Below are positions 18,000-30,873 of a stretch of DNA of 64,000 nt, in pieces (position 1 is the first letter of the stretch; every line of letters begins with the position of its first letter). This stretch comes from Xanthomonas sacchari (lineage in GTDB: Bacteria; Pseudomonadota; Gammaproteobacteria; Xanthomonadales; Xanthomonadaceae), in the NCBI RefSeq assembly GCF_024266585.1, contig NZ_CP100647.1, forward strand, positions 2,833,001-2,897,000, in the 5' to 3' direction. The translations under genes were made by a program, and so were the position numbers. The notes under the pieces are model-generated. The model was not told where the DNA came from, did not search any database, and worked only from the letters and a program-made list of their open reading frames with translations.

Positions 18000-20591
18000 T
18001 CAGGCGGCGACCGTGTCGGCCACGTCCTGGTAGTCCTGGATCTGATCGAAGTTCATGTAGCGATAGATCTGCTCGCCGCTGGTCTTGATCACGCCCACGT
18101 CGGCCATGTACTCGTCCTTGGTCGGAATCCGGCCCAGGCGCGAGCAGATCGCCGCCAACTCCGCCGAGCCCAGGTACACGTTGGTGTTGCGGCCCAGGCG
18201 GTTGGGGAAGTTGCGGGTGGAGGTGGAGAACACCGTGGCGCCCTCGCGCGCCTGCGCCTGGTTGCCCATGCACAGCGAGCAGCCCGGCATTTCCATGCGC
18301 GCGCCGGCGGCGCCGAAGGTGCCGTAGTGGCCTTCCTTGGTCAGCTCCGAGGCGTCCATCTTGGTCGGCGGCGCGACCCACAGGCGGGTCGGGATGTCGC
18401 GCTTGCCTTCCAGCAGCTTGGCCGCGGCGCGGAAGTGGCCGATGTTGGTCATGCACGAACCGATGAACACTTCGTCGATCGCCGCGCCGGCGACGTCGGA
18501 GAGCGTCTTCACGTCGTCCGGGTCGTTCGGGCAGGCCACGATCGGCTCGTGGATGTCTGCCAGGTCGATCTCGATCACCGCGGCGTATTCGGCGTCGGCA
18601 TCGGGCTCGAGCAGCTGCGGGTCGGCCAGCCACTCCTCCATCTTCTTGATCCGCCGCGCCAGCGAACGCGCGTCGGCATAGCCTTCGGCAATCATCCACT
18701 TCAACAGGGTGATGTTGCTGGTCAGGTACTCGACGATCGGCTCCTTGTTCAGGCGCACCGTGCAACCGGCGGCCGAACGCTCGGCCGAGGCGTCGGACAG
18801 TTCGAACGCCTGCTCCACCTTCAGCTCCGGCAGGCCTTCGATCTCCAGGATGCGGCCGGAGAAGATGTTCTTCTTGCCCTGCTTGGCCACGGTCAGCAGG
18901 CCCTGCTTGATCGCGTACAGCGGGATCGCGTTGACCAGATCGCGCAGGGTCACGCCCGGCTGCATCTGCCCCTTGAAGCGCACCAGCACGCTTTCCGGCA
19001 TGTCCAGCGGCATGACGCCGGTGGCGGCGGCGAAGGCGACCAGGCCGGAGCCGGCCGGGAACGAGATGCCGATCGGGAAGCGGGTGTGCGAGTCGCCGCC
19101 GGTGCCGACGGTGTCGGGCAGCAGCATGCGGTTGAGCCAGCTGTGGATCACGCCGTCGCCCGGGCGCAGCGACACGCCGCCGCGGGTGGAGATGAACTCC
19201 GGCAGGGTGTGGTGGGTCTTGACGTCCACCGGCTTCGGGTACGCCGCGGTGTGGCAGAACGACTGCATCACCAGGTCGGCGGAGAAGCCCAGGCAGGCCA
19301 GGTCCTTCAGCTCGTCGCGGGTCATCGGGCCGGTGGTGTCCTGCGAGCCCACCGAGGTCATCTTCGGTTCGCAGTAGGTGCCCGGACGCATGCCCTGGCC
19401 TTCCGGCAGGCCGCAGGCGCGGCCGACCATCTTCTGCGCCAGCGAGAAGCCCTTGCCGGTATCGGGCGGGTTCATCGGCAGGCGGAACAGGTCCGAGGCC
19501 GGCAGGCCCAGGAACTCGCGCGCCTTGGCGGTGAGGCCGCGGCCGACGATCAGCGGGATGCGGCCGCCGGCGCGCACTTCGTCGAACAGCACGTCCGACT
19601 TCAGCGCGAACTCGGCGATCACCTGCCCGTTCTTCAGCGCCTTGCCCTCGTACGGACGCAGCTCGACCACGTCGCCGTGCTCCATCTGCGACACGTCCAG
19701 CTCGATCGGCAGCGCGCCGGCGTCTTCCATGGTGTTGTAGAAGATCGGCGCGATCTTCGAGCCCAGGCACACGCCGCCGAAGCGCTTGTTGGGGATGTAC
19801 GGGATGTCCTCGCCGGTCCACCACAGCACCGAGTTGGTCGCCGACTTGCGCGAGGAACCGGTACCGACCACGTCGCCGACGTAGGCGACCAGGTGGCCCT
19901 TGGCCTTGAGGTCGGCGATGGCCTGGATCGGGCCGCGCTTGCCGTCTTCTTCCGGCTCGAACGGCGCGCCGTCGCGTTTGTTCTTCAGCATCGCCAGCGC
20001 GTGCAGCGGGATGTCCGGGCGGGTGGTGGCGTCCGGCGCCGGCGACAGGTCGTCGGTGTTGGTCTCGCCCGGCACCTTGAACACGGTGATGGTCAGGCTC
20101 TGCGGCACTTCCGGCTTGCTGGTGAACCACTCGGCCTCGGCCCAGCTCTGCAGCACCGCCTTGGCGTGCGCGTTGCCGGCCTCGGCCTTCTCCTGCACGT
20201 CGTGGAAGGCGTCGAAGATCAGCAGCGTGTGCTTGAGGCCTTCGGCGGCGACCGCGCCCAGCTCCGGGTTGTCCAGCAGCTCGATCAGCGGATGGATGTT
20301 GTAGCCGCCGAGCATGGTGCCCAGCAGTTCGGTGGCGCGGGTCGGCGAGATCAGCGGGGTCTTCTCGCTGCCGAAGGCGACCGCGGCCAGGTACGAGGCC
20401 TTGACCTTGGCGGCGTCGTCGACGCCGGCGGGCACGCGGTGGCTCAGCAGTTCGACCAGGAACGGCTCCTCGCCGGCCGGCGGGTTCTTCAGCAGTTCGA
20501 TGACCTGCGCGGTCTGCTGCGCGCTCAGCGGCAGCGGCGGGATACCCAGCGCGGCGCGCTCGGCTACGTGGTGGCGGTAGGCTTCCAACAT
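18000..20591 (-). CDS. acnB: Bifunctional aconitate hydratase 2 / 2-methylisocitrate dehydratase AcnB
   Basis: The 863-residue AcnB interconverts citrate and isocitrate through cis-aconitate with a [4Fe-4S] cluster, and often dehydrates 2-methylisocitrate. The N-terminal helical repeat domain starts MLEAYRHHVAERAALG, typical of AcnB. Cluster cysteines are in FIGSCMTNIGHF and GCSLCMGNQA. The length matches the family. GGAGA lies upstream of the ATG. A vapBC-type pair lies 52 bases upstream on the same strand with no obvious terminator between, so part of acnB transcription may come from that promoter. A second aconitase (acnA) is 8 kb away. Confidence 0.97.
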   Translation of the reverse strand: MLEAYRHHVAERAALGIPPLPLSAQQTAQVIELLKNPPAGEEPFLVELLSHRVPAGVDDAAKVKASYLAAVAFGSEKTPLISPTRATELLGTMLGGYNIHPLIELLDNPELGAVAAEGLKHTLLIFDAFHDVQEKAEAGNAHAKAVLQSWAEAEWFTSKPEVPQSLTITVFKVPGETNTDDLSPAPDATTRPDIPLHALAMLKNKRDGAPFEPEEDGKRGPIQAIADLKAKGHLVAYVGDVVGTGSSRKSATNSVLWWTGEDIPYIPNKRFGGVCLGSKIAPIFYNTMEDAGALPIELDVSQMEHGDVVELRPYEGKALKNGQVIAEFALKSDVLFDEVRAGGRIPLIVGRGLTAKAREFLGLPASDLFRLPMNPPDTGKGFSLAQKMVGRACGLPEGQGMRPGTYCEPKMTSVGSQDTTGPMTRDELKDLACLGFSADLVMQSFCHTAAYPKPVDVKTHHTLPEFISTRGGVSLRPGDGVIHSWLNRMLLPDTVGTGGDSHTRFPIGISFPAGSGLVAFAAATGVMPLDMPESVLVRFKGQMQPGVTLRDLVNAIPLYAIKQGLLTVAKQGKKNIFSGRILEIEGLPELKVEQAFELSDASAERSAAGCTVRLNKEPIVEYLTSNITLLKWMIAEGYADARSLARRIKKMEEWLADPQLLEPDADAEYAAVIEIDLADIHEPIVACPNDPDDVKTLSDVAGAAIDEVFIGSCMTNIGHFRAAAKLLEGKRDIPTRLWVAPPTKMDASELTKEGHYGTFGAAGARMEMPGCSLCMGNQAQAREGATVFSTSTRNFPNRLGRNTNVYLGSAELAAICSRLGRIPTKDEYMADVGVIKTSGEQIYRYMNFDQIQDYQDVADTVAA

Positions 20592-30873: not shown

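What the first reader, a model, noticed from the sequence alone, without database searches (positions are those of the whole stretch)
18000..30873. A complete import-and-isomerise locus lies between the two aconitase genes
Seen: from 21.5 to 28 kb a LysR regulator, a GalD/PrpF-family isomerase, an NMT1/SsuA-type ABC importer and an OprP-like porin form one divergent unit, and both flanks are aconitases (acnB and acnA). Known: PrpF-family enzymes move double bonds in aconitate-like tricarboxylates, and PrpF has been reported to act on aconitate isomers; GalD acts on 4-oxalomesaconate in gallate breakdown. No gallate dioxygenase or hydratase is here. Inference: the locus could import an unsaturated tricarboxylate such as trans-aconitate (abundant in grasses) or an aromatic-ring product and convert it to something the aconitases or citrate cycle can use. 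I know of no described system with this combination.
Basis: partly seen in the sequence, partly recalled or inferred. Interest (0 to 1): 0.78.

Follow-up and report, generated by a model that had tools for sequence, protein, structure and literature searches.

The report
Portable import-and-isomerise operon for aconitate-like acids
A compact set of genes, present in this Xanthomonas and in many root-associated bacteria, probably pulls trans-aconitate (a plant acid common in grasses) into the cell and flips it into an ordinary citric-acid-cycle compound, although databases name its enzyme after a different pathway.

Summary
Between acnB (18000-20591, -) and acnA (28114-30873, +) lies a divergent unit: LysR regulator, GalD-family isomerase, NMT1/SsuA-type binding protein, ABC ATPase, permease, OprP-type porin. 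It is a conserved, portable operon: of the 80 closest named loci retrieved with the isomerase, 80 have the divergent LysR and 79 the ABC binding protein and ATPase. In this family acnA and acnB are neighbours anyway (under 3 kb apart in 89 of the 98 genomes, of 198, that could be measured). The 9 with about 7.4 kb between them are exactly those with the cassette there, so it entered an existing site. The isomerase passes NCBI's '4-oxalomesaconate tautomerase' cut-off but falls outside the clade found in gallate/protocatechuate clusters, and this genome lacks the CHA aldolase of that pathway. More distant relatives keep LysR and isomerase with other carboxylate carriers (TctA, DctA, DASS type). 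Best explanation: inducible uptake of trans-aconitate and one-step isomerisation to cis-aconitate, working like the known tarRAB system but with an ABC importer plus porin. The substrate is inferred, not shown. New variant of a known kind.

The parts
18000..20591 (-). acnB, aconitate hydratase B (flank; old neighbour of acnA)
   Evidence: TIGR00117 1511.7 bits, cut-off 1287.2
20644..21051 (-). PIN-domain (VapC-like) gene, part of the old acnB-acnA spacer, not of the cassette
   Evidence: PF01850 49.1 bits; also present in the empty site of G195, L048
21528..22967 (-). OprP/OprO-type outer-membrane porin, last gene of the cassette
   Evidence: PF07396 94.4 bits; in all 10 relatives of the family and in 25 of 80 named loci
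23089..23865 (-). ABC importer permease
   Evidence: PF00528 97.1 bits; TauC and SsuC models far below cut-off
23849..24697 (-). ABC importer ATPase (overlaps permease and binding-protein genes)
   Evidence: PF00005 120.7 bits
24694..25746 (-). NMT1/SsuA-fold substrate-binding protein, lipoprotein by its signal sequence
25830..26936 (-). PrpF-superfamily isomerase, GalD/YbhH-like; proposed aconitate delta-isomerase
   Evidence: PF04303 400.8 bits; NF033377 494.7, TIGR02334 216.3 below its 440.55 cut-off; Lys and Cys motifs kept
27000..27016 (-). conserved element GCAATTCACAGATTAAT in the divergent promoter, proposed LysR operator
   Evidence: core motif in 74 of 90 divergent spacers; the only exact match of the longer pattern in this genome
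27041..27943 (+). divergent LysR-type regulator
   Evidence: PF03466 179.8 and PF00126 80.7 bits
28114..30873 (+). acnA, aconitate hydratase A (flank)
   Evidence: TIGR01341 1368 bits, cut-off 945; AcnD model 824.2 below cut-off 1419.85

Best explanation
The six cassette genes form an inducible assimilation operon for an unsaturated tricarboxylate, most likely trans-aconitate. The porin lets the acid through the outer membrane, the lipid-anchored binding protein and ABC transporter bring it into the cell, the PrpF-superfamily isomerase shifts the double bond to give cis-aconitate, and ordinary aconitases feed it into the citric acid cycle. The LysR protein switches the operon on through one conserved site in the divergent promoter. 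Shown here: gene content, conservation as a unit, insertion between pre-existing neighbours acnA and acnB, kept catalytic residues, a conserved promoter element, different importers beside the same pair in relatives, absence of a CHA aldolase. Inferred: substrate, direction of transport, inducer, enzyme activity.
For: (1) One enzyme only: outside the cassette no flanking protein family recurs in more than 22 of the 55 non-Xanthomonad loci, and that one is an ABC exporter-like family about 3 kb away; the next recurs in 8. So the product should enter central metabolism directly, as cis-aconitate does. (2) Importers differ around the same LysR/isomerase pair: ABC in 79 of 80 close loci; TctC-TctB-TctA in L093; TctA with a receptor-like protein in L175-L177; DctA in L139; YbhI of the DASS type with aconitase-like YbhJ in E. 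coli. (3) Among 20 more distant loci from 17 genomes, 5 have TctA without this LysR, 2 of those with a homologue of a gene annotated tcuA, tricarballylate dehydrogenase; another isomerase lies beside an aconitase. (4) The methylcitrate role is covered by PrpF beside AcnD, and no CHA aldolase is found in this genome or, as a strong match, in 10 of 11 cassette genomes of the family. (5) The isomerase falls outside the gallate-cluster clade. (6) Lys and Cys kept in 86 of 86 cassette rows; the LigU chains 6p3h and 6p3k are changed at exactly these two; in PrpF Lys73 is required and Cys107 variants fail to support growth on propionate (PMC5690661, passages). (7) LysR + isomerase + importer is a proven trans-aconitate layout (PMC11495376). 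(8) The promoter element is kept across classes and importer types.
Against: No ligand or activity is shown. The binding-protein fold also serves sulfonates, nitrate, bicarbonate, thiamine precursors and PQQ; I could read no ligand for the nearest, 3qsl. NCBI's model calls the isomerase 4-oxalomesaconate tautomerase above cut-off. Carboxylate carriers also accompany true gallate clusters: DctA-like genes in 5 of 7 family loci, DctA and a tripartite receptor in L144; so importer type alone does not tell the two roles apart. The receptor-like proteins of five TctA-type loci (L145, L175, L176, L177, L184) match no Pfam family. None of the 20 more distant loci has the ABC importer, and 6 show none of my markers. 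A tannase-family gene adjoins the operon in Agrobacterium vaccinii, and such genes lie near it in 2 of 80 loci. The promoter element is missing upstream of E. coli ybhH, in the Providencia locus and in exact form in 14 cassette spacers. The deep branch joining all non-gallate isomerases is weak (84/41). TarA and TbrA sequences could not be obtained, and in PMC11495376 three of ten strains with TarA homologues showed only very low activity, so kinship alone proves little.
Confidence: 0.65

Rival explanations
1. It is a true GalD: it tautomerises 4-oxalomesaconate during gallate or protocatechuate breakdown, and the importer takes up an aromatic acid or ring-cleavage product.
For: NF033377 494.7 bits over the 440 cut-off; LigU is among the nearest solved structures; tannase-family neighbour in A. 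vaccinii; gallate clusters too can carry carboxylate transporters.
Against: No CHA aldolase in this genome and only one LigB-superfamily ORF, 268 aa, type not determined; 0 of 80 cassette loci have galB, CHA aldolase, LigJ, VOC dioxygenase or LigB homologues in the flanks held, while clade-B GalD homologues of the same family sit beside a CHA aldolase in 7 of 7 loci fetched, of 17 found; separate clades. G043 carries both kinds.
Confidence: 0.09
2. The unit imports another unsaturated di- or tricarboxylate (for example a methylaconitate, methylitaconate or citraconate-like acid) and the isomerase converts it for another pathway.
For: PrpF-superfamily enzymes act on several such acids; 3-methylitaconate isomerase 3g7k is a relative; a DctA-type dicarboxylate symporter stands beside the pair in Bradyrhizobium.
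Against: No further enzyme gene recurs beside the cassette in the 55 non-Xanthomonad loci, and 2-methylaconitate is already served by PrpF/AcnD here.
Confidence: 0.17
3. The isomerase is a detoxifying or stray enzyme and the NMT1-type importer carries an unrelated anion such as a sulfonate.
For: Closest named transporter models include taurine and sulfonate types; the fold is shared.
Against: Those models score far below their cut-offs; isomerase and ABC transporter stay together in 79 of 80 loci across two classes, and elsewhere the pair stands with other carboxylate carriers.
Confidence: 0.06
4. The locus makes and secretes trans-aconitate, like TbrA/TbrB of Bacillus thuringiensis.
For: The isomerisation is reversible, and characterised isomerases are reported to prefer trans-aconitate formation in vitro (PMC11495376, discussion).
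Against: A binding-protein-dependent ABC system is an importer by kind, as are DctA and tripartite carriers.
Confidence: 0.02

Closest known systems
tarR-tarAB trans-aconitate assimilation system of Bacillus velezensis (PMC11495376)
   Same: LysR regulator beside an operon of a PrpF-superfamily aconitate isomerase and one importer; the product enters the citric acid cycle directly
   Different: TarB is an MFS carrier in a Gram-positive; here an ABC importer with lipoprotein receptor plus outer-membrane porin, and an isomerase that NCBI files as GalD. Sequence identity to TarA/TarR not measured
E. coli K-12 ybhD-ybhH-ybhI-ybhJ (functions putative in the record)
   Same: divergent LysR, isomerase that is the nearest solved relative (6otv), a carboxylate transporter, an aconitase-like protein next door
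   Different: DASS-type transporter, aconitase-like YbhJ inside the row, promoter element not found
GalD/LigU 4-oxalomesaconate tautomerase/isomerase
   Same: same superfamily, NCBI equivalog cut-off passed, same Lys and Cys
   Different: different clade; no tested gallate/protocatechuate markers nearby; CHA aldolase absent from this genome
PrpF 2-methylaconitate isomerase (with AcnD)
   Same: superfamily, catalytic residues, aconitate chemistry
   Different: TIGR02334 below cut-off; the genome has its own PrpF beside AcnD
SsuABC/TauABC sulfonate importers
   Same: binding-protein fold and transporter class
   Different: the sulfonate and taurine models are far below cut-off

Membership tests
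4-oxalomesaconate tautomerase (GalD, NF033377) | scores above the curated equivalog cut-off | tested here: met
   494.7 against 440 bits
4-oxalomesaconate tautomerase (GalD, NF033377) | gallate/protocatechuate ring-cleavage genes (dioxygenase, hydratase, CHA aldolase) in the cluster or genome | tested here: not met
   0 of 80 cassette loci by five markers; no CHA aldolase in the genome, with positive controls; a single LigB-superfamily ORF of 268 aa whose type was not determined
4-oxalomesaconate tautomerase (GalD, NF033377) | falls in the clade of gallate-cluster members | tested here: not met
   gal clade 100/98 without it in both careful trees
PrpF 2-methylaconitate cis-trans isomerase (TIGR02334) | curated cut-off and AcnD neighbour | tested here: not met
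   216.3 against 440.55 bits; AcnD lies beside the other PrpF
LysR + isomerase + importer trans-aconitate assimilation (tar-type) | LysR gene beside the isomerase operon with a shared promoter | tested here: met
   104-bp divergent spacer with conserved element
LysR + isomerase + importer trans-aconitate assimilation (tar-type) | PrpF-superfamily isomerase with catalytic residues | tested here: met
LysR + isomerase + importer trans-aconitate assimilation (tar-type) | MFS importer of the TarB kind | tested here: not met
   ABC importer instead
LysR + isomerase + importer trans-aconitate assimilation (tar-type) | aconitate isomerase activity, induction and growth on trans-aconitate | not testable with these tools
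   needs bench work
LysR + isomerase + importer trans-aconitate assimilation (tar-type) | close sequence kinship to TarA/TarR | not tested
   TarA, TarR and TbrA sequences were not obtained (one accession tried: no record)
SsuA aliphatic-sulfonate binding protein (TIGR01728) | curated cut-off | tested here: not met
   74.1 against 163.5 bits

The most novel reading that the evidence does not exclude
A whole branch of what databases-oxalomesaconate tautomerase is in fact a family of aconitate isomerases that travel with a LysR regulator, often a shared promoter element, and an exchangeable importer. The rhizobial and Xanthomonas members then carry the first ABC-type trans-aconitate importer, and the E. 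coli orphan row ybhD-ybhH-ybhI-ybhJ is a related tricarboxylate pathway.
Probability: 0.48. Interest if true: 0.75.

Novelty: new variant of a known kind. Interest (0 to 1): 0.6.

Why it matters
Trans-aconitate is a plant acid, abundant in grasses, and an aconitase inhibitor (recalled). [quoted passage not shown] This locus offers a concrete ABC candidate with a receptor that can be tested by thermal shift, in a form carried on rhizobial plasmids: of 29 plasmid records found by DNA search with the Rhizobium TA1 isomerase and receptor genes, 14 are predicted conjugative. It also suggests that a widely used database name is wrong for a large branch of proteins, and gives a testable role for the E. 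coli ybhHIJ row.

Tried and rejected
Gallate/protocatechuate role: disfavoured for this genome. Methylcitrate role: covered by PrpF/AcnD. Aconitases as part of the unit: rejected; the acnA-acnB neighbourhood also stands without the cassette, cassettes lie elsewhere in G071 and G098 and away from acnA/acnB within the flanks held in the non-Xanthomonad loci, and the promoter element occurs at none of acnA, acnB or acnD.

Substrate from fold: led nowhere. The binding-protein model matches the whole NMT1/SsuA/NrtA/Thi5 fold group, and a paper search for the 3qsl ligand found nothing useful. Foldseek's own listing was not obtained.

Literature: no paper on an ABC-type or Xanthomonas/Rhizobium trans-aconitate system was among those listed by the searches. 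These cover open-licence PubMed Central only, and most lists were cut at 10 or 20 papers of hundreds or thousands. Word look-ups in PMC11495376, PMC13188880 (abstract also seen), PMC3333776 and PMC11103875 returned none of the terms asked; PMC8581550 mentions tctABC induced by root exudates but no aconitate term; PMC12542648 mentions only the trans-aconitate methyltransferase. Consensus promoters and terminators: nothing beyond chance.

Errors of mine: two PrpF rows were translated on the wrong strand, so its PrpF residue counts are void, and that quick tree put the gallate rows inside the wider cassette set; rebuilt. In one search one TctC query was in the wrong frame (X at stops); the real frame was scanned. 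The start picker failed for L065, L066 and L069. The 0.08% null rate of the promoter motif uses simple letter shuffles of related sequences and overstates independence. On checking this report I lowered the main odds from 0.68 to 0.65 because carboxylate carriers also sit in gallate clusters and the TctA-type receptors have no Pfam match; the odds of two rivals were raised by 0.01 each and the novel reading was lowered from 0.5 to 0.48.
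Full report
WHAT IS THERE. The window lies in a complete 4.89-Mb genome. Its genus is that of Xanthomonas sp. F10: genome G085, 'same genus', has a contig of 2,634,419 bases, the length of the named F10 contig NZ_JACHNP010000001.1. A PIN-domain gene lies between acnB and the porin.

CONSERVATION IN THE FAMILY. In 198 genomes of the family, 11 (own included) carry this isomerase at 72% identity or more. All 10 others were fetched, and all 10 have LysR, isomerase, binding protein, ATPase, permease and porin in the same order. 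In 8 of the 10 the cassette lies between acnA and acnB; in 2 (G071, G098) it does not. acnB rings at 1e-200 in 122 of 198 genomes and acnA at 1e-300 in 182, with a capped list of places. Both places are listed for 101 genomes, 98 of them on one contig. There acnA and acnB are under 3 kb apart in 89 (median 880 bases) and 7,391-7,533 bases apart in 9, which are exactly the 9 with the cassette there. G071 and G098 have empty sites of 971 and 974 bases. So the cassette entered an existing acnB-acnA site; the aconitases are old neighbours, not parts of it. The other 100 genomes were not measured.

CONSERVATION BEYOND. The isomerase is there by construction. The divergent LysR is present in 80 of 80, binding protein and ATPase in 79, permease in 78 (L117 ends at the contig edge, L093 has another importer), porin in 25: the 24 Xanthomonad-type loci plus L095. 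acnA and acnB lie nearby in 17 and 16 of 80, all Xanthomonad-type. On plasmids the binding protein has tblastn matches in 239 records, 162 of them Rhizobium, but only 55 at 60-80% identity. The five-gene order was read in Aureimonas, Agrobacterium, Phyllobacterium and two Rhizobium records; in Shinella the permease is missing from the incomplete gene table but found by tblastn. To see whether another gene travels with the unit I compared all flanking ORFs of the 80 loci: in the 55 non-Xanthomonad loci the commonest family recurs in 22, at a median of 3.1 kb, and its example is an ABC exporter-like protein; the next recurs in 8 and its example is a LysR protein. No further enzyme is linked.

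WHICH ENZYME. The isomerase passes NCBI's 4-oxalomesaconate tautomerase model (494.7 against 440) and fails PrpF's (216.3 against 440.55). The nearest solved relative is E. coli YbhH, then LigU, 3-methylitaconate isomerase and PrpF. Trees used subsets: 52 rows (29 cassette rows of 86), then 57 rows (14 of the 52 dropped, 19 added; 19 cassette rows). In both, members sitting in gallate/protocatechuate clusters form one clade (100/98) and PrpF another (100/100). In one search one branch (97/95) holds all cassette rows plus L093, L139, YbhH, L140 and L145; a branch of 96/92 holds the cassette rows plus L093 and L139. The deeper branch joining all non-gallate isomerases is weak (84/41), so I claim separation of the cassette clade from the gallate clade, not one ancestor for everything else. 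The Lys and the Cys of the NCGN motif are kept in 86 of 86 cassette and 14 of 14 gallate-type rows. The LigU chains 6p3h and 6p3k differ at just these two positions (alignments).

CONTEXT TEST FOR GALLATE. Of 17 clade-B GalD homologues in the family 7 were fetched, and 7 of 7 lie beside a CHA aldolase, 5 of 7 also near a LigJ-like hydratase; seven plasmid loci annotated '4-oxalomesaconate tautomerase' likewise have an annotated CHA aldolase. For the cassette, 0 of 80 loci have any of five such markers in the flanks held. The own genome has no CHA aldolase, and 10 of 11 cassette genomes lack a strong match; the exception, G043, carries both kinds. G111, G134 and G043 are positive controls at over 340 bits; weak 30-36 bit matches in G091, G016 and G138 were not counted as presence. 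The own genome's single LigB-superfamily match is a 268-aa ORF, whose exact type I did not determine.

CONTEXT TEST FOR TRICARBOXYLATES. The importer beside the LysR/isomerase pair differs: TctC-TctB-TctA in an Azospirillum MAG (L093; TctC and TctA by Pfam), DctA in Bradyrhizobium japonicum (L139), TctA with a receptor-like protein in three gammaproteobacteria (L175-L177), and YbhI (DASS type by Pfam) with aconitase-like YbhJ in E. coli K-12. In a class-wide search 20 of 369 genomes had a match at 1e-90; I fetched contexts for 20 of the 23 listed places (own locus, G071 and G256 left out), from 17 genomes. Of these 20: 3 have the LysR and TctA; 5 have TctA without that LysR, 4 with its receptor-like neighbour in view and 2 with a homologue of the gene annotated tcuA in Pseudosulfitobacter; 1 lies beside an aconitase; 5 are gallate-type, one of them by the hydratase alone; 6 show none of my markers. 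None has the ABC importer. The receptor-like proteins of L145, L175, L176, L177 and L184 match no Pfam family; their name rests on the Pseudosulfitobacter annotation. Against my reading, DctA-like carriers also accompany 5 of 7 gallate loci of the family, and L144 has both DctA and a tripartite receptor.

REGULATION. The divergent spacer is 104 bases here. The core GCA[AT]TT[CT]ACA occurs in 74 of 90 spacers, 73 of them at exactly the same distance from the LysR start. The carriers include the Tct- and DctA-type loci L093 and L139, and a TctA-type locus outside the set (L176, seen). Letter shuffles give 0.08%, but the sequences are related. The E. coli and Providencia spacers lack it, as do 14 cassette spacers, most of which show near-matches by eye. 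The own genome has one exact site of the longer pattern and two with two mismatches, so the regulator looks dedicated to this operon.

MECHANISM. One enzyme, one importer, one regulator: the product should enter central metabolism directly. [quoted passage not shown] the other known substrates of the superfamily would need more enzymes (pathway knowledge). PrpF is reported to isomerise trans- to cis-aconitate; its Lys73 is required, and Cys107 variants keep some activity in vivo but do not support growth on propionate (PMC5690661, passages). The tarRAB system of Bacillus velezensis has LysR, PrpF-superfamily isomerase and importer, and allows growth on trans-aconitate (PMC11495376: abstract and three sections). 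In Xanthomonads the receptor is a lipoprotein by its signal sequence where the start could be read, while alphaproteobacterial ones mostly show cleavable-type signals, and a porin is added: a Gram-negative build of the same idea. A benefit of sitting between aconitases (trans-aconitate inhibits aconitase; recalled) is possible but untested.

LIMITS. Substrate, transport direction and induction are inferred. The binding-protein fold is shared by receptors for very different ligands. The enzymes proven to act on trans-aconitate (TarA, TbrA) could not be placed in the tree.

Noticed in passing
L051 (E. coli K-12 NC_000913.3, 799622-805764): ybhD-ybhH-ybhI-ybhJ, all annotated 'putative', has the same logic: LysR, isomerase, carboxylate transporter, aconitase-like protein. 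A ready laboratory test case.
   Followed up: partly
window 20644-21051; L048 4034-4429: A PIN-domain (VapC-like) gene lies between the aconitases both with and without the cassette, so it belongs to the old spacer of this family.
   Followed up: partly
L070: A record titled Bacillus subtilis SK7B5 carries the Xanthomonad acnA-cassette-acnB locus; the assembly is probably mislabelled or contaminated.
   Followed up: no
L095 (Alpha proteobacterium L41A): A record titled alphaproteobacterium holds the Xanthomonad form of the cassette, with porin (46%) and lipoprotein-type receptor; it groups with Xanthomonads in the tree.
   Followed up: partly
L053 9506-11428; L126 near 12247; L102 near 391: Tannase/feruloyl-esterase family genes lie beside or near the operon in three alphaproteobacteria: perhaps an esterase freeing the substrate, perhaps a hint of gallate.
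   Followed up: partly
L052 2426-4522; L053 2703-4535: Chemoreceptor genes with different sensor domains (4HB and sCache_2) lie next to the LysR gene in Aureimonas and Agrobacterium.
   Followed up: partly
window 24694-25746; one search list: Binding protein is a lipoprotein by signal sequence in most Xanthomonad-type loci, with mostly cleavable-type signals in alphaproteobacteria.
   Followed up: partly
L043-L046, L048; L144: DctA-like dicarboxylate carriers sit in gallate-type clusters of this family and of Agrobacterium, next to the true GalD homologues.
   Followed up: no
window 49841-49934: ARAGORN reports one tRNA-like gene with an odd four-base anticodon.
   Followed up: no
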